In this document: positions 4-14,930 of the stretch, piece after piece
Layout: every line of letters begins with the position of its first letter
How positions within the stretch are numbered: the stretch's first letter is position 1
Assembly (NCBI RefSeq): GCF_900474185.1
Contig: NZ_UCNW01000008.1
Location: 496,001 to 560,000, forward strand
Origin: Synechococcus sp. UW69
GTDB taxonomy: Bacteria; Cyanobacteriota; Cyanobacteriia; PCC-6307; Cyanobiaceae
Direction: 5' to 3'
DNA length: 64,000 nt
Notes under the pieces: model-generated
The model's database searches: none
Seen by the model: only the letters and a program-made list of their open reading frames with translations
Told to the model about the DNA's origin: nothing
Program-made: the position numbers and the translations under genes

Positions 4-549
4 ATGCGCCAGGGAGAAGTAGATCGCTACACCCAACAATTGGAGGCAGGATTTTTCGGACTTAGAGCTAAGCTTGGTCGACAGAAGACCAGTTGCACGT
101 TGAAATTCGACCAGAATGGACTGGATAATTTTGTTGCTCCAACTGACTTGGTAGAAATGCAAAAATACCCTGGGCGAATTGAATGCTGCAACAGTGATAT
201 TGAAGCAGCAGGCCAAGCCAGCGGGTGTGCCAATGGGCCGGAAATTGGTGCATTACTAGCACAAGGCCAACCAGCAGAAGAACAACCCAAAATCATCCGC
301 GAGCGATCCTTACGCCTCCTCGACCAAGAAGGAACACCAGAATCGCAAGCGGTGGAGGTGGCTGTGAATCTCCGTCGCTATGAGCTCACGCCTCCGGGAA
401 CGAGCACGATGTCGGATGACCTGATTTTTCTAATCCGATCGACCAACACCCAGGGACAACGACTGCGCACACGCTGCCTGCAAATATCAGGAACTGGAAC
501 TGTCATCCGCGCCAGTTGGGACGCTTCATCATCAAGGTGCGAGAAATAA
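4..549 (+). CDS. Hypothetical protein, possibly a minor pseudopilin C-terminal part
   Basis: The reading frame is open from the window edge to a TAA at 547-549, so the ATG at 4 may be internal and the N-terminus may lie outside. The visible 181 residues have no transmembrane segment. Cysteines occur near residues 36, 61-62, 75, 157 and 178. The tail (RCLQISGTGTVIRASWD) resembles the last beta-strands of GspH/FimT-type minor pseudopilins. A prepilin-like gene follows 92 bp downstream on the same strand, which fits a pilus or pseudopilus context. The pilin assignment is inference from this tail and the neighbour; no catalytic motif is present. Confidence 0.5.
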   Translation: MRQGEVDRYTQQLEAGFFGLRAKLGRQKTSCTLKFDQNGLDNFVAPTDLVEMQKYPGRIECCNSDIEAAGQASGCANGPEIGALLAQGQPAEEQPKIIRERSLRLLDQEGTPESQAVEVAVNLRRYELTPPGTSTMSDDLIFLIRSTNTQGQRLRTRCLQISGTGTVIRASWDASSSRCEK

Positions 550-641: not shown

Positions 642-2333
642 ATGAAATCAAGAACCTTGCTTGCCCATATCCCTCAAAAACCAGAGAAAAATGGCTTTGC
701 AGGCATGAGTGAATTGGTGATTGCTGCAGGGGTCGGAACACTCTTAATCATGGCCTCTGGGGTAGCACTGCAATCCACTGGAACACTTATTAAGCAGTCC
801 GAAGAAAAAACAACACTCCGTCAAAACTCAACCAATGGCCTGCGATTACTACGTTCAGAAGTTGAACGAAGCATGCACCTTGTGATCAACAAGACAGAAG
901 CCTTTACAGAAGAGCAAGCCCATATCAATCTAAGCGACAGTCGGTATACATCACTGCTAGATGAATGCAATCAGTTGGCTGGGGCCCGACCCTTCAAACC
1001 GCTTTTCGGAGTGAAAATGGTCGAGCTCAATAAACCCGTTTTATACGGCATGAGTTTGAGATCAGGTGGTTACACCATTGAGCGATGCGGAGCACCACTG
1101 GATCCGGATGGAAAATACAACGAAACGGCGAATGTTTTCCTTTCTCGCGTCCTGGAAGACATCGGCGCCATTCCCTGCCGCAAGGAAAGCGAACTCAATG
1201 AAGGTGAAAGCCTGGCCACCGTGTGTGAAGAGGATGGTCCGACTAGGGCTGAGATTCTGAACAGCACGGATTTCACCTTCACGGCAGGCAAAACACCAAG
1301 CCGAACGGAGCGTCAACCCGGACTACGCATTGAAACCGACACCAACTACAAATTGGTGAAATTCATTGACCCGACGGAAACTGGCGAGGGTCAAAATGAA
1401 GATACCATCACCGAAAGCTTCATCAACAAGCTCGGCGTTGGTGACAAGCAAGTGACCTACCAACCGCTTTATTTCACCGCCTTCGCACGTGCCGACAAAC
1501 GCGTTGACAACTTCGGGGAAGGAGACCAAGGAGGGCCTCTTAACGGTGCTTTCTTCCAAAACATTGCGAGCAGCAATGTTCGCTTTGTGCTCGACGGATC
1601 AGGCTCCATGAGTGCCTGTGTGATGTGGGGCGATGGCTACGGGGCCTGGAGAACCTTCTACGATCCAAACAAGAAGAGATATCGCGATACTCGAAAAATT
1701 TGCGCACTGACAAGAATGGAGGCTCTTATCAGTGAGATGACAATGATCCTAGAACAATTGCCAGACAACACGAATATCGGGATCGCAGCTTTTAGCTCTG
1801 GCAGCTACCAAAACAATAAAGAGTGGGCAGAATCGTCCGACGGTTTGGTTCGCCTAGGCGACGCCGGCAAACGTGATTCAGCCTTGGCATTTGTGAACAG
1901 TCTTGATGCAGGAAAAGTCAGCAGATGGGGAGGAACAGACCCGTGGTTATCCATTGAAAATGTCTTCAACGACAAACAAACCGATACCCTTTATCTACTC
2001 ACCGACGGCGAACCCGATCAAGACCCTGATGGTGGAGACTGGAAGAACAACGATCATGAGCCCACGGCCATTAAATACGCTGAATTCAACAACAACAGAA
2101 GTTACGGAGGCAAGGATCAACCGCTGATCGTTAACACCACATCAGTGGATTTAAAATCCAACTGGCTGATGAAGCTTTCAGAATTAACACGCGGTACTTA
2201 TCTGGAAGTCGGGAAAGACAACAACGGCCATGGAAATAATCTCGGAGATTGTGACCCAAGCAATCCAAGCGCGAACTTCGATCACTGCAACGACGCAGAC
2301 GACATTGAACTCAACGGAGGCCAAACGCCTTGA
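642..2333 (+). CDS. Prepilin-like protein with von Willebrand factor A domain
   Basis: The 563-residue protein begins with a charged leader, then a prepilin-like junction (KNGFAGMSELVIAAG) and a hydrophobic helix at about residues 23-45, as in type IV pilins. Residues from about 313 to 520 form a vWA domain with a complete metal-ion-dependent adhesion site: D318-G-S320-G-S322, T432 (GGTDPW) and D455 (LTDGEPD). Such proteins are expected to be exported through a type IV pilus-like machine and to bind a ligand at the tip. The Glu normally at +5 of the mature pilin is at +6 if cleavage follows the Gly of KNG, so processing is uncertain. It converges on lepA with 24 bp between stops. Confidence 0.8.
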   Translation: MKSRTLLAHIPQKPEKNGFAGMSELVIAAGVGTLLIMASGVALQSTGTLIKQSEEKTTLRQNSTNGLRLLRSEVERSMHLVINKTEAFTEEQAHINLSDSRYTSLLDECNQLAGARPFKPLFGVKMVELNKPVLYGMSLRSGGYTIERCGAPLDPDGKYNETANVFLSRVLEDIGAIPCRKESELNEGESLATVCEEDGPTRAEILNSTDFTFTAGKTPSRTERQPGLRIETDTNYKLVKFIDPTETGEGQNEDTITESFINKLGVGDKQVTYQPLYFTAFARADKRVDNFGEGDQGGPLNGAFFQNIASSNVRFVLDGSGSMSACVMWGDGYGAWRTFYDPNKKRYRDTRKICALTRMEALISEMTMILEQLPDNTNIGIAAFSSGSYQNNKEWAESSDGLVRLGDAGKRDSALAFVNSLDAGKVSRWGGTDPWLSIENVFNDKQTDTLYLLTDGEPDQDPDGGDWKNNDHEPTAIKYAEFNNNRSYGGKDQPLIVNTTSVDLKSNWLMKLSELTRGTYLEVGKDNNGHGNNLGDCDPSNPSANFDHCNDADDIELNGGQTP

Positions 2334-2357: not shown

Positions 2358-4178
<1,821 letters not shown>

Positions 4179-4311
4179 GCAGCGGCGGAATCCCGTCTCG
4201 GGTCCAGAGATCGTCGTTGTCACAATCCTAAGGAGTGGCGATCAATAGAAAGGCAGGCCTTACAGAAATTGGCTTGCTCGAGTGGATGTGCCGCCTGGTA
4301 CGGATGAATGA

Positions 4312-4644
4312 TCAGCTCACGTAGTAGCTGAGGGGCTCCTCCGGCGTTCCTTCCCGGTCAATCTGCATCTGGATCTTGGCCAAATAGCGACGGGCCACAA
4401 AAGCATTTTCCATCTCATAAGAAGCAAAACGCTCCAGCTGACAGCACTGGCTTACCACCACATCGGCACGATCGAAATGGAAGCCAGTCTCAGCCGCCAG
4501 GGCAATGACTGCATCCAGGTCAATGTCGAGAGGCAAATGGGTGTCTCCCCATTGGTCCACGCGAAACGTGACAAGTTGCTCCTGCAACTTGACATCCGAA
4601 CGTACCCTGGCGAGAAAACCCAGAAGCTGCTTTTGACCACTCAT
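4312..4644 (-). CDS. Nif11-domain protein coupled to sulfatase
   Basis: This 110-residue protein has the Nif11-like fold signature in its first 60 residues: a helix LLGFLARVRSDVKLQEQL followed by DLDAVIALAAETGFHFDRAD. The start ATG overlaps the sulfatase stop as ATGA (4641-4644), and an AGGAG lies just upstream, so I prefer this start to an upstream in-frame one that would overlap the sulfatase by 40 bp. Nif11 domains act as leader peptides in some RiPP precursors, but there is no double-glycine cleavage site or Cys/Ser/Thr-rich core here; the C-terminal half is a charged helical extension. Its role with the sulfatase is unknown. Confidence 0.8.
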   Translation of the reverse strand: MSGQKQLLGFLARVRSDVKLQEQLVTFRVDQWGDTHLPLDIDLDAVIALAAETGFHFDRADVVVSQCCQLERFASYEMENAFVARRYLAKIQMQIDREGTPEEPLSYYVS

Positions 4645-7064
4645 CCAGGAGCTCCTAGAGGCAAGAAACCACCGATCCACTCGACTGCCAAATCGGAAAG
4701 CTGAAGATCACCCGAAAGACCTGACAAGTACTGATACGACGGACCATTGGTTCCACTGATGTTGGGAACAAGTAAATCTCCGACGCTAACGACAAGATTG
4801 CCGGCGTCATCAATTTGCCGCTGAAGGGCTACCAGGTTGTAGCTCTGGCCAGCTCGTGTGTTGAAGGCAAGCTCCAATGCTTGGGTTCCACCGTCTTCGG
4901 CCATTAACCGCACAATGCGATCACCATCTGTATACGCAGACTCATCTCCTGAAGAACCTCCGCGATAGCGGGTGATCGTCGGTGCCTTTGATGGCCACGG
5001 CAACAAAGGGTTAAGTCTCGACTCAATTTGCTCATCCAGAAGTTGCGACATCTGCGTATAAGCAAACCTTTGCCCTTCGGTCGCAAGAGGATCTTCACCA
5101 TTGAGCACTCGCAATGCTTCTGCCTTGGGATCCAGATTTCGCAGCTCTAACGGAGCAGCCTTGAACGGATTCAATTCACCAGTGAGCGGATCCACATTGG
5201 GGTAATAGTCACCCCCTCGAGGGCGCAGGTCATAAAGCTCACCTTGCCAATTAGAAGGTTCATACTCCTGATCACCAGAGAAATAACGCACATATTTAAA
5301 GTCCTTAGTATGAACAGCCTGCAAACGATTTGGCCCAGGTAGAAGACCATGATCCCAAGCACCCTGAGGCATAGAATCGCGAGGATCTTGCCCAGCATAG
5401 ATATCATCGTAGGTGTAAAGGAGCGATGACTGCACATCAAGCTGATCAAACGAAAGCGAAGAATCTGATGCAGCCCTGCGGATGATTGAGGAGTAATCGA
5501 CACCACTAAAGTCATAACCATCTAATTGCTCTTCACTGGAGCCATAGAGCCCTGCAACAGTGGGGAGGAAGTCAACAAGCGAGACCAAAGCTTCACTAGA
5601 CTGTCCACCTTTAAAGTATTGAGGATTCGACCAGATCATCGGGACCCTGATCGATTCGTCATAGGCATTGAACATCTTCTGCACCATGCCGCCATGCGAA
5701 AGCCCCATTTCACCATGATCACCCGTGCTCACAAACATGGTGTCGTCAACAGCCTGATGGCGAAATAGAGTTTTAATCACATCCCCCATCTGCGTATCAG
5801 CTATTTTCATGAGATTGCCATAGAAATTAAGGTAATTGAGTTTCATCTCGTCCGTCGGCAAGGGCTGTGCAGCGGCCTGCGCAAGCAGCCACTCTCTTTG
5901 CACCTGAGGCTTATAATTACCTGCAAAATCAATTCCATTTTCCACAAAAACTGGATCAGAGATAGGCTCAACAACAGTCGGAGGAAGGATATTAATATCT
6001 CCCTTAATCATGTTCTTATCGTAACCAAAATACTCATCAGGATCGCCCTCACCCCAACTCTTTGGATACGACAACACATCGTGGGGATTCACCAACGACA
6101 CAACCATGGCGAAAGGTCGATCATTTCCGGAATCAAAACGATCATCAAGCCACTTATTGGCCTGATCAATAAAGCGAGAGTCATTATCTGCATACCCTCC
6201 TCCTGCATGTTTGGGATTCATGTCCTGACCAGCATCCGGCCCTTGCCAATTACTGAACCCATACGGCTGCATGTCCTGATACACCACCTCACCATCTTCA
6301 AGGGTGATGGTCTTACTTAAATGTGTTTTACCAAAGTAAGAAACGTCATACCCTTGATCCAACAGAACATCCCCAAGCGTGGACAAATCAGGATTAAGCT
6401 GAACTTGAGAATCAAGAATAGGATTGTCAATATCACTCAAGAGCAATCCAACCTCATGCTGAGCTGGAAATTTGCCCGTAAAAAAAGTAGCCCTGGCTGA
6501 TGAACACATCGCTGTGTTCGTGAAGGAGTTCTCAAATGACAGACCGTTGTCGAGAAGCCACTGGCGGGTTGGGAGATTTTCCTTGGCCCAGTCGCGAGGA
6601 AGCCACAGATCCTCTGGCTTGACTTGATCCCTAATGAAAACAACAAGATTTTGAGGTCGGTCCGCCGCAGACTCAGCATCCGTGATGGCCTGACGTACCT
6701 GTTGGATTTCTTCCGAGGTGCGCAACTCCTCTAATCCGATCTGCTCGGCAACATTCAAATAATCACGGCTGGTCAGAAGCTCTGCATCGCCCAGCTGCTC
6801 AGGATTGAATCCAACCAACTCGGCAACACGCCGTTCATCGTTAGTGGCCTGCAAACCCAATGGATCTTCTTGCAAAGCCTTTTCTGCCAGAAAATCACGG
6901 ATCTCTTCTACTTCGCGCCGCTTATCAAGCCGCCTGATTTCTATGTCTTTGGCAACACTCAGGAGTTCTTGCACCTCCTGAAGATATTCGTCTTTAAATG
7001 AGTTTCTTTCGTAACCGATCAGACGAGCAACTCGACGCTCATCTGAGCTGAGAGATGACCACAT
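4641..7064 (-). CDS. Sulfatase-family hydrolase with N-terminal tandem repeat
   Basis: This 807-residue protein belongs to the alkaline phosphatase/sulfatase superfamily. The putative nucleophile region is C187-S-S-A-R191-A-T-F-F-T-G, and metal-site residues are visible in TGDHGEMGLSHGG and around D146. The third position of the motif is Ser instead of the Pro or Ala expected by formylglycine-generating enzyme. Residues 8-59 and 76-127 are two copies of a charged helical repeat (DERRVAxLxG...LxVAxxI...IRxx) with a 68-residue period. No signal peptide is seen. A C-terminal segment of about 90 residues (720-807) lies outside the sulfatase fold. The gene looks AT-richer than its neighbours, suggesting acquisition. 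Substrate unknown; sulfate or phosphonate esters are possible. Confidence 0.85.
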   Translation of the reverse strand: MWSSLSSDERRVARLIGYERNSFKDEYLQEVQELLSVAKDIEIRRLDKRREVEEIRDFLAEKALQEDPLGLQATNDERRVAELVGFNPEQLGDAELLTSRDYLNVAEQIGLEELRTSEEIQQVRQAITDAESAADRPQNLVVFIRDQVKPEDLWLPRDWAKENLPTRQWLLDNGLSFENSFTNTAMCSSARATFFTGKFPAQHEVGLLLSDIDNPILDSQVQLNPDLSTLGDVLLDQGYDVSYFGKTHLSKTITLEDGEVVYQDMQPYGFSNWQGPDAGQDMNPKHAGGGYADNDSRFIDQANKWLDDRFDSGNDRPFAMVVSLVNPHDVLSYPKSWGEGDPDEYFGYDKNMIKGDINILPPTVVEPISDPVFVENGIDFAGNYKPQVQREWLLAQAAAQPLPTDEMKLNYLNFYGNLMKIADTQMGDVIKTLFRHQAVDDTMFVSTGDHGEMGLSHGGMVQKMFNAYDESIRVPMIWSNPQYFKGGQSSEALVSLVDFLPTVAGLYGSSEEQLDGYDFSGVDYSSIIRRAASDSSLSFDQLDVQSSLLYTYDDIYAGQDPRDSMPQGAWDHGLLPGPNRLQAVHTKDFKYVRYFSGDQEYEPSNWQGELYDLRPRGGDYYPNVDPLTGELNPFKAAPLELRNLDPKAEALRVLNGEDPLATEGQRFAYTQMSQLLDEQIESRLNPLLPWPSKAPTITRYRGGSSGDESAYTDGDRIVRLMAEDGGTQALELAFNTRAGQSYNLVALQRQIDDAGNLVVSVGDLLVPNISGTNGPSYQYLSGLSGDLQLSDLAVEWIGGFLPLGAPG

Positions 7065-7185: not shown

Positions 7186-7506
7186 ATGCGTACGCCATGG
7201 ACCCTGCTGCTACTTGCGATCAGCGCTGAGGTGATTGGCACCTCTTGCCTGCGGTTGTCGGAAGGCATGACCCGACCGCTGCCCACCCTTCTGGTGTTCA
7301 GCGCCTATGCCATCGCCATGGCCCTGCTCTCCAAGGTGGTGCTGAGCATTCCCTTGGGCATCACCTATGCCCTCTGGAGCGGCATCGGCACCGTGGTGAT
7401 CGTGCTGGTGGGGCGCTTCGCCTACAGCCAGATGCTGCAGCCCACCCAGTTGATCGGCATCGGCCTGATCACCGCCGGGGTGGTCTTGGTGAATCTGGCG
7501 AAATGA
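7186..7506 (+). CDS. Small multidrug resistance (SMR) transporter, EmrE-like
   Basis: The 106-residue protein has four predicted transmembrane helices and the SMR hallmarks: the essential membrane-embedded acid E15 (SAEVIGTSCLRLSEGMTR), the GITYALWSGIGTV segment of helix 3, and a C-terminal helix ending GVVLVNLAK. Family members are proton-coupled antiporters of quaternary cations or guanidinium. The sequence is closer to the EmrE type than to SugE/Gdx, but the substrate cannot be read from it. It converges on mqo with only 3 bp between stops and is divergent from the sulfatase. Confidence 0.9.
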   Translation: MRTPWTLLLLAISAEVIGTSCLRLSEGMTRPLPTLLVFSAYAIAMALLSKVVLSIPLGITYALWSGIGTVVIVLVGRFAYSQMLQPTQLIGIGLITAGVVLVNLAK

Positions 7507-13424: not shown

Positions 13425-14930
13425 TCAGAGCAACTTCTGGCGCAGGGCTTGTTCCGCTTCCTCGCGGTCGTCAAAGTGCACCTTCTCGGTGCCGAGAATC
13501 TGGTAGTCCTCATGCCCCTTGCCGGCCACCAGCACCAGATCATCGGCCTCAGCCTCTGCAATGGCTGAGGCGATCGCACTGGCCCGATCGCCCTCCACAA
13601 GGAGATCGATTCCGTCCGGAATCCCCGTCACCACGTCATCGAGGATCTGCTGAGGATCCTCCGTTCGCGGGTTGTCGGAGGTGACCACCACGCGGTCAGC
13701 CAGGCGGGCTGCAATCGCGGCCATTTGGGGACGCTTGCCCCGATCCCGGTCACCACCACAACCGAACACACAGATCAGCCGGCCGGTGCAGAACGGACGT
13801 GCTGCTGAAAGAGCATTGTCCAAGCCATCCGGGGTATGGGCGTAATCCACCAACACCGGCGGCAGCACTTCATCGTTAACCCCGTCCACGATCACCCGCT
13901 CCATCCGTCCAGGCACACCGCCGAAACGGCCGATGGCCTCCAGCAACACCGGCAAGGGCAACTGCTGCTGAAGCAGCACCCCAACCGCCTGAAGCAGGTT
14001 CATCAGGTTGAAGCGTCCCAGCAGGGGCGAGCGGAAGCGTCCCTCTCCCACAGGGCTGATCAAGCGTCCCTCCACGCCAGCCCCCGTCATCTGCAGGTCG
14101 GTCATGTGCAGTTCAGCCGATGGATCCTCCAGCGAGCTGCGCCAACAAGCGGAGCCCAGGCGTTCGGCCAAGCGCGCACCCCAGGGATCATCGCTATTCA
14201 CGACAGCGCGCCCCCCACCATCGAGCAACAAAGGATCGGCAAAAAGCGTTGCCTTGGCCTCGAAGTAGTCCTCCATCGAGGCGTGGTAGTCGAGGTGGTC
14301 CTGCGTGAGGTTGGTGAACACGGCACCGCCAAAGCGGCAGCCCGCCACCCGCTGCTGCGCCAGGGCATGGGAACTCACTTCCATCGCCGCCAGGGAGCAG
14401 CCAGCAGAGGCAGCCTCCGCGAGTTGCCCCTGCAGACGGTCGGCAAATGCCGTGGTGTGGGTGGCCGTGATGCTGTGACCGGGCCAGCGGTTGACCAAGG
14501 TGCCGAACAAGCCCACGGGCTGGCCCGCCGAGGCGGCCAGATGCTCAATCAAATGGGTCGTGGTCGTTTTGCCATTGGTGCCCGTCACACCAATCAAGGC
14601 CATCCGGCGGCAAGGGTGATCCCAGTACGCAGCAGCAATCTCACCGATGCGGCGCGCCACCGGCTCTTCAATCACCACCACAGGGTCATCAGCTCCAGGA
14701 GGGTGCGCTGCAGCAGCCCCAGGTCCGATTACCGCGGCGGCAGCACCTGCCTCGAGTGCTTGAGCCCAGAACGTCCCCCCATCGACTTGCTCCCCTGGAA
14801 GCCCAAGAAACAGACTCCCCGGCCCAACCCGGCGTGAATCAGTCGTGATCGCTTCCAGTGTGGGATTGGCCAGGCCTTGCGGCACCGCAATCCCTGCATC
14901 ACTCAACAGGGCATGCAACGCCTGAGTCAT
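13425..14930 (-). CDS. murE: UDP-MurNAc-L-Ala-D-Glu:meso-diaminopimelate ligase
   Basis: Cytoplasmic Mur ligase adding the third residue of the peptidoglycan stem. The ATP loop GVTGTNGKT is at residues 115-123, and the DNPRTEDP motif at 419-426 has the Arg that specifies meso-diaminopimelate over lysine. The 501-residue length is normal. It is the last gene of a minus-strand group yidD-glutaredoxin-murE, 36 bp after the glutaredoxin-like gene. Confidence 0.97.

What the first reader, a model, noticed from the sequence alone, without database searches (positions are those of the whole stretch)
4312..7064. Sulfatase translationally coupled to a stand-alone Nif11-domain protein
A sulfatase-superfamily enzyme overlaps by ATGA with a 110-residue Nif11-like protein lacking a leader cleavage site and core peptide. 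Nif11 domains are known as RiPP leaders or as unassigned proteins near nif genes; a Nif11 protein as a sulfatase partner is not a pairing I know. It could be a folding or delivery factor, or mark the sulfatase as a Nif11-guided modification target. The AT-rich composition suggests import.
Basis: partly seen in the sequence, partly recalled or inferred. Interest (0 to 1): 0.6.

Follow-up and report, generated by a model that had tools for sequence, protein, structure and literature searches.

The report
Sulfatase with a dedicated Nif11 partner
In some picocyanobacteria a sulfate-removing enzyme without a clear export signal is encoded beside its own small Nif11-type protein, which suggests that such stand-alone Nif11 proteins can act as dedicated helpers of large enzymes and not only as peptide leaders.

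Summary
On the minus strand, an 807-aa sulfatase (7064-4641) overlaps by ATGA a 110-aa Nif11 protein (4644-4312).

The pairing is conserved. Of 400 genomes searched in the same family, 14 carry this Nif11 subfamily; in all 14 the same sulfatase family lies directly beside it. Ten overlap by ATGA, two are same-strand with a gap, two convergent, in at least six settings. Of 15 genomes with a close sulfatase, only G139 lacks the Nif11 gene. Its sulfatase alone carries RTX repeats, and is sister (100/100) to a Nif11-paired, RTX-less one.

I infer that the Nif11 protein is a dedicated chaperone or adaptor of a leaderless sulfatase, most likely for type I-like export; binding and export are not shown. 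Not supported: a RiPP precursor, a C39-exporter leader, or an obligatory adaptor of the known maturases. Three near-complete genomes have the pair but no detected FGE (with its Cys pair) or anaerobic maturase.

My searches found no paper describing the pair. Import is undecided: six genomes of another genus carry the pair at the same site.

The parts
4641..7064 (-). leaderless sulfatase-superfamily enzyme, 807 aa
   Evidence: PF00884 E 1.9e-35; 14-member family alignment A2
4312..4644 (-). stand-alone Nif11-domain protein, 110 aa, the sulfatase's partner
   Evidence: PF07862 25.8 bits; subfamily alignments A1 and A3; AlphaFold2 pLDDT 79, helices 3-16, 18-25, 43-52, 59-94
4641..4644 (-). ATGA stop/start overlap of the two genes
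   Evidence: the same ATGA in 10 of 14 genomes
4652..4656 (-). AGGAG, candidate ribosome-binding site of the Nif11 gene (7 nt spacer)
   Evidence: read from the sequence
6882..7064 (-). N-terminal helical repeat unit 1 of the sulfatase (aa 1-61)
   Evidence: 30% identical to unit 2, E 2e-9; helices in the model
6678..6860 (-). N-terminal helical repeat unit 2 (aa 69-129)
   Evidence: two, one or no copies among the family members with a complete N-terminus (by eye)
6492..6506 (-). active-site motif C187-S-S-A-R191 (candidate formylglycine site)
   Evidence: Cys and Arg invariant in A2
4659..4913 (-). C-terminal beta-rich domain (aa 718-802); a second, divergent copy, then RTX repeats, follow it in G139
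2358..4223 (-). lepA, flank shared with g34 genomes
   Evidence: compared in five g34 genomes; the sixth contig, G641, ends before it; named from sequence resemblance (recalled)
7186..7506 (+). SMR-type small membrane transporter, shared flank
   Evidence: named from sequence resemblance (recalled)

Best explanation
The two genes encode an enzyme and its dedicated small partner. Shown by genomics: the partner belongs to its own Nif11 subfamily. That subfamily has a WGDxHxPLDID insert, a long C-terminal helix (SQC..L..F..FEMENaFVARRylARIQ) and a Tyr near its end. In everything searched it is found only beside one family of sulfatases that keep the active-site residues and lack a clear Sec signal, and it stays beside them after changes of locus and of orientation. 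Inferred: the Nif11 protein binds the fresh sulfatase in the cytoplasm as a chaperone or adaptor and passes it to a non-Sec, type I-like export route. This would do in trans what an RTX tail does in cis. The outside enzyme would then remove sulfate from polysaccharides or small esters (substrate inferred from the superfamily only).
For: (1) 14 of 14 genomes with the Nif11 subfamily have the sulfatase adjacent; 14 of 15 genomes with a close sulfatase (E <= 6.1e-167, over 500 bits) have the Nif11 gene. (2) Two of 14 pairs are convergent (G069, G626) and two are same-strand with gaps of 92 and 36 nt, so adjacency is kept without the operon overlap. (3) At least six settings without shared flanking genes (G106, whose contig holds little else, is left out). 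(4) Nif11 and sulfatase distances correlate (r 0.88, 13 genomes, 0 of 2000 label shuffles as high), and Nif11 Ka/Ks is 0.07-0.23 in six pairs. (5) No clear Sec signal: for the window protein the best 15-residue hydropathy in the first ~75 residues is 0.17, against 1.83 for the genome's other sulfatase (crude). (6) The only close member without Nif11, G139, has RTX repeats (PF00353 9.9e-14), the only one of 16 sequences with the motif. It is sister to Nif11-paired, RTX-less G626 at 100/100, the two being 58% identical over 660 residues. (7) The window's genome has a foldase followed by ABC-exporter-like and HlyD-like genes (the last two named from resemblance). In G626 two genes near the pair match metalloprotease domains, one over and one under its cut-off, without an evident leader.
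Against: Binding and export are not shown. The RTX/Nif11 exchange rests on one lineage, and G139 is 78% complete, though the gene sits inside a 16-kb contig with no Nif11 beside it. The tree tool flags G626 and G139 as unlike the rest in letter make-up. G171 (99% complete) has the pair but no match to the type I foldase. The hydropathy test is crude: four complete sequences reach 1.1-1.6, three of them in a doubtful upstream start (G641, G656, G600) and one not (G069). The mirror correlation is also what common descent gives. No solved fold resembles the Nif11 model (best Foldseek E 3.7). A resemblance of the Nif11 helix to the type I foldase was tested and failed.
Confidence: 0.4

Rival explanations
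1. Maturation or folding chaperone of a cytosolic sulfatase: the Nif11 protein holds the sulfatase open so that its Cys187 can be turned into formylglycine, or so that its extra domains fold. Export is not involved.
For: The Cys and other active-site residues are invariant. The window's genome has an FGE with the Cys pair, but it sits beside the other sulfatase. No clear export signal was seen. 14 of 15 genomes have some PF03781-domain protein over cut-off.
Against: Only 9 of 15 genomes have a PF03781 protein with the FGE-type Cys pair. Three genomes of at least 99% completeness (G064, G171, G165) have none in the loci scanned, and no genome of 15 has an anaerobic maturase over cut-off; two of the sub-cut-off hits were checked and score best as GrrM. 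So at least the FGE-adaptor form does not fit all pairs.
Confidence: 0.25
2. Regulatory subunit or inhibitor: the Nif11 protein stays bound to the sulfatase as a subunit that tunes activity or keeps it off inside the cell.
For: The near 1:1 co-occurrence and a conserved long helix with invariant polar residues (Q66, C67, E77, N80, R86, Q92) suggest a fixed interface. Unk10, a stand-alone Nif11 protein, is encoded at the chromatic-acclimation island (PMC3877281, passage).
Against: Does not explain why the one Nif11-less member has an RTX tail.
Confidence: 0.2
3. RiPP precursor, or Nif11 leader read by a C39 peptidase exporter.
For: Nif11 leaders are RiPP leaders, and 9 of 15 of these genomes hold a C39 domain over cut-off.
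Against: TIGR03798 under cut-off; no conserved Gly-Gly; the C-terminal part is conserved, not variable; I saw no lanthipeptide-type synthetase among the neighbours listed (by eye). No C39 match in G000, G656, G171 or G106.
Confidence: 0.04
4. Passive hitchhiking: two genes that moved together without a functional link.
For: Composition suggests that the pair has moved between genomes.
Against: Orientation differs with adjacency kept, at least six settings, and no Nif11 of this kind found away from a sulfatase.
Confidence: 0.05

Closest known systems
Nif11-leader RiPP precursors (N11P, TIGR03798; prochlorosins)
   Same: Nif11 domain; many paralogues in cyanobacteria; some adjacent to ABC transport clusters (PMC2887384, passages)
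   Different: No conserved Gly-Gly site, no variable core, conserved C-terminal half, partner is a large hydrolase
Unk10, stand-alone Nif11 protein of the marine Synechococcus chromatic-acclimation island
   Same: 107-118 aa with an N-terminal Nif11 domain, encoded at the 5' end of that gene island (PMC3877281, passage)
   Different: Different neighbours as described there; not compared here by sequence
Type I sulfatases (PF00884; yidJ-type and glycan sulfatase structures)
   Same: Domain and active-site residues; best solved-structure match by sequence is putative sulfatase yidJ (2qzu)
   Different: Extra N-terminal helical repeats and C-terminal beta domain; no clear Sec signal; dedicated Nif11 partner; CSSAR instead of C-x-P/A-x-R (motif recalled)
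RTX proteins of type I secretion
   Same: One family member (G139) has RTX repeats
   Different: The Nif11-paired members have none

Membership tests
Nif11 domain (PF07862) | score over Pfam gathering cut-off | tested here: met
   25.8 against 23.8 bits for the window protein; 14 of 14 members match at E <= 0.01, the only Pfam family that they match (their scores against the cut-off not shown)
Nif11-leader RiPP precursor (TIGR03798) | score over NCBIfam cut-off | tested here: not met
   26.9 against 32.3 bits (window protein only)
Nif11-leader RiPP precursor (TIGR03798) | Gly-Gly leader site followed by a core | tested here: not met
   none in the window protein; a GG after the long helix only in the g34 members, not conserved
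Nif11-leader RiPP precursor (TIGR03798) | modification enzyme or C39 exporter available | tested here: not met
   no C39 match in the window's genome; no modification enzyme seen among the ORFs listed beside the pair (by eye; the rest of the genome was not searched for them)
Type I (formylglycine) sulfatase | sulfatase fold and domain | tested here: met
   PF00884 1.9e-35; sequence and structure matches are sulfatases (model confidence low, pLDDT 59)
Type I (formylglycine) sulfatase | C-x-P/A-x-R maturation motif | tested here: inconclusive
   CSSAR in the window; Cys187 and Arg191 invariant in A2, third position Ser; motif definition recalled
Type I (formylglycine) sulfatase | catalytic and metal residues (D, K, H, H, D, H/N, K) | tested here: met
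   D146, K246, H248, H328, D449, H450, K463 invariant in 14 sequences; roles assigned from recalled arylsulfatase knowledge
Type I (formylglycine) sulfatase | formylglycine actually formed | not testable with these tools
   needs mass spectrometry; FGE present in the window's genome
RTX / type I secretion substrate | RTX nonapeptides | tested here: not met
   motif absent in 15 of 16 family sequences, the window's included, present in G139; Pfam agrees for the window, G106, G165 and G626
RTX / type I secretion substrate | exporter in the genome | tested here: met
   foldase with ABC-exporter-like and HlyD-like genes on G000:C9 (Pfam run on the G626 homologues of the foldase and ABC protein)

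The most novel reading that the evidence does not exclude
The Nif11 domain serves here as a trans-acting export adaptor: a free 'leader protein' that delivers a large, RTX-less enzyme to a type I-like exporter, interchangeable in evolution with an RTX tail on the enzyme itself. Stand-alone Nif11 proteins, so far without function, would then be a class of enzyme-specific escorts from which RiPP leaders may derive.
Probability: 0.22. Interest if true: 0.8.

Novelty: new variant of a known kind. Interest (0 to 1): 0.55.

Why it matters
Stand-alone Nif11 proteins occur in many copies in marine picocyanobacteria, and in the passages I saw they have no assigned function (PMC2887384; PMC3877281). This pair gives one subfamily a single, testable partner enzyme, conserved across 14 genomes. 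It also offers a natural exchange (Nif11 against RTX tail, one case) that points to a role in delivery, and it shows sulfatases with no detected maturase in three near-complete genomes.

Tried and rejected
(a) RiPP precursor or C39-exporter leader: rejected. (b) FGE or anaerobic-maturase adaptor as an obligatory role: not supported. TIGR03942 rang in 13 of 15 genomes under cut-off; I checked two (G000, G171) and both score best as GrrM, TIGR04261; the other eleven were not checked. (c) A resemblance of the Nif11 helix (ENSFvAR) to the type I foldase (ENSFlAR in G626): profile comparison gave probability under 1% in both modes tried, so chance. (d) Phage carriage: no relative among viral contigs or phage records. 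(e) Plasmid carriage of the sulfatase: only matches at 26-28% identity on 4 records, none covering 80% of the query. (f) Fold search of the Nif11 model: nothing. (g) Sulfatase model: pLDDT 59, used only for coarse anatomy. (h) Six of the 21 sulfatase genomes (167-196 bits) and two outside the family (G509, G512) are distant sulfatases; I left them out of the pair count. (i) A published vesicle sulfatase of Prochlorococcus MIT9313 (PMT_1515; PMC9298688, passages; one further search) may or may not belong here; I could not test it. The genome-contig scan returned seven loci, none named MIT9313.

Full report
What is there. On the minus strand a sulfatase gene (7064-4641, 807 aa) ends in ATGA, within which a 110-aa Nif11 protein starts (4644-4312). 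Pfam gives Sulfatase 1.9e-35 and Nif11 25.8 bits, over its cut-off; the RiPP-leader model is under its cut-off. The window lies in G000, 2.37 Mb, with 9 Nif11 matches and 2 sulfatase matches. The other sulfatase (L033) starts with a signal-like hydrophobic stretch and stands beside an FGE (PF03781 E 1e-71) with no Nif11 next to it.

Is the pairing general? In 201 genomes of the family, 9 had a relative of the sulfatase (E <= 1e-10, G000 included). A homologue of the Nif11 protein lay beside it in five of the other eight. These five and the window's Nif11 protein align as a subfamily with 27 invariant columns. With that profile, 14 of 400 genomes of the family match at E <= 1e-6; 3 of 386 genomes drawn over the phylum match, all three in this family. 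In 14 of 14 the sulfatase gene is the immediate neighbour. With the sulfatase profile, 21 of 400 match at 1e-40: 15 at over 500 bits and 6 at 167-196 bits. All 14 Nif11 genomes are among the 15; the two 400-genome draws look the same, which I did not verify. Seven loci of the genome-contig scan have the contig lengths of seven of these genomes (Synechococcus sp. AG-673-A03, 8F6, CS-1328, AG-679-B05, CS-1330 and two metagenome-assembled genomes), so I do not count them again.

Arrangement. Ten of 14 pairs overlap by ATGA. G106 and G165 have gaps of 92 and 36 nt. G069 and G626 are convergent. The window and six g34 genomes share flanking genes (4 to 6 matching ORFs with the window, the sulfatase and Nif11 included), G064 and G171 share two flanking genes, and G592, G069, G165 and G626 share none beyond the pair; the G106 contig holds too little else to tell (ORFs of 100 aa or more, flanks of unequal length). 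Nif11 Ka/Ks is 0.07-0.23 in six genome pairs; a seventh pair was saturated.

Anatomy. The sulfatase has two N-terminal helical repeats, present in two, one or no copies in the family, a sulfatase core with invariant active-site residues, and a C-terminal beta-rich domain. G139 has a second, divergent copy of that domain and then RTX repeats. The Nif11 protein is predicted as four helices, the last one long (59-94; pLDDT 79). The conserved columns outside the Nif11 domain proper are the WGDxHxPLDID insert and the long helix.

The exchange. On the sulfatase tree G139 (RTX, no Nif11) is sister to G626 (Nif11, no RTX) at 100/100; the two are 58% identical over 660 residues. This suggests that Nif11 was lost as an RTX tail came, though it is one event. 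The tree tool warns of long branches among the distant rows and G106b, and of unusual letter make-up in G626 and G139 among others. None of the other 15 sequences has the RTX motif.

Machinery. The window genome's FGE matched 11 of 15 genomes at 1e-5, some of them only in fragments. PF03781 is over cut-off in 14 of 15, but the FGE-type Cys pair (recalled motif) was found in 9 of 15 (the scan covered the 30 loci returned). Of the 10 genomes at least 90% complete, 7 have it and G064, G171 and G165 do not. No genome of 15 has an anaerobic maturase over cut-off. C39 domains are over cut-off in 9 of 15, under it in 2, and absent in G000, G656, G171 and G106. The type I foldase is matched in 13 of 15, missing in G641 (80% complete) and G171 (99%). 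In G000 it is followed by ABC-exporter-like and HlyD-like genes (by resemblance).

Origin. The sulfatase is AT-rich in G000 (GC3 0.46 against 0.81 for lepA). Its GC is lower than its locus in G641, G064, G592, G171, G069, G106, G165 and G626 too, but not in G656, G606, G624, G600 and G547. G000 and g34 sulfatases are 74-79% identical, much as the flanking mqo-like gene is (70-72%), at a shared site; lepA there is 94-96% identical. Of the same-genus genomes, G000 and G626 have the pair, and the 20 others that the listing shows do not. Transfer and loss are both possible.

Literature. Searches: Nif11 with sulfatase, 3 papers (passages of all three read; none on the pair); Nif11 domain with chaperone, 0; Nif11 with Prochlorococcus, 14 (passages of four read, PMC10783134, PMC3877281, PMC2887384 and PMC11928666; the other ten listing only); unk10 with Synechococcus, 3 (PMC3877281 passage, others listing); sulfatase with Prochlorococcus, Synechococcus and MIT9313, 1 (PMC9298688, passages); PMT1515, the same paper; Nif11 with type I secretion, 4 (listing only, apart from PMC2887384); cyanobacteri with sulfatase, type I secretion and RTX, 3 (listing only). 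None seen describes this pair. Nif11 genes near enzyme, photosynthesis and clock genes are known (PMC10783134, passages; PMC3877281, passage).

Judgement. The functional pair is, in my view, near certain (about 0.95). That the Nif11 protein is a chaperone or export adaptor is the best-supported mechanism (0.4), followed by a maturation chaperone (0.25) and a regulatory subunit (0.2).

Noticed in passing
window 4-549 and 642-2333 (+): Genes resembling pseudopilins (by eye), one of 563 aa with a weak VWA match below cut-off, lie near the pair; similar genes lie near it in g34 loci L062-L066 (by eye).
   Followed up: partly
L033:7046-10317 (own genome): The genome's second sulfatase starts with a lipoprotein-like signal and is followed directly by an FGE carrying both catalytic-type cysteines.
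   Followed up: partly
L037:4745-5089, 14190-14471, 14533-14766 (own genome): Nif11-type genes inside a region of what look like phycobiliprotein and lyase genes (by eye); compare Unk10 in PMC3877281.
   Followed up: no
window 6678-7064 (-): A duplicated helical unit of about 61 aa at the sulfatase N-terminus without a Pfam match, present in two, one or no copies across the family.
   Followed up: partly
G064, G171, G165 genomes: Cys-type sulfatases in genomes at least 99% complete with no FGE (Cys-pair type) or anaerobic maturase detected: an unknown maturase or an unmodified enzyme.
   Followed up: partly
L029:1404-5972 (G106): Two tandem sulfatases of this family with a single Nif11 gene; the upstream one lies at the contig end and lacks a normal N-terminus.
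   Followed up: no
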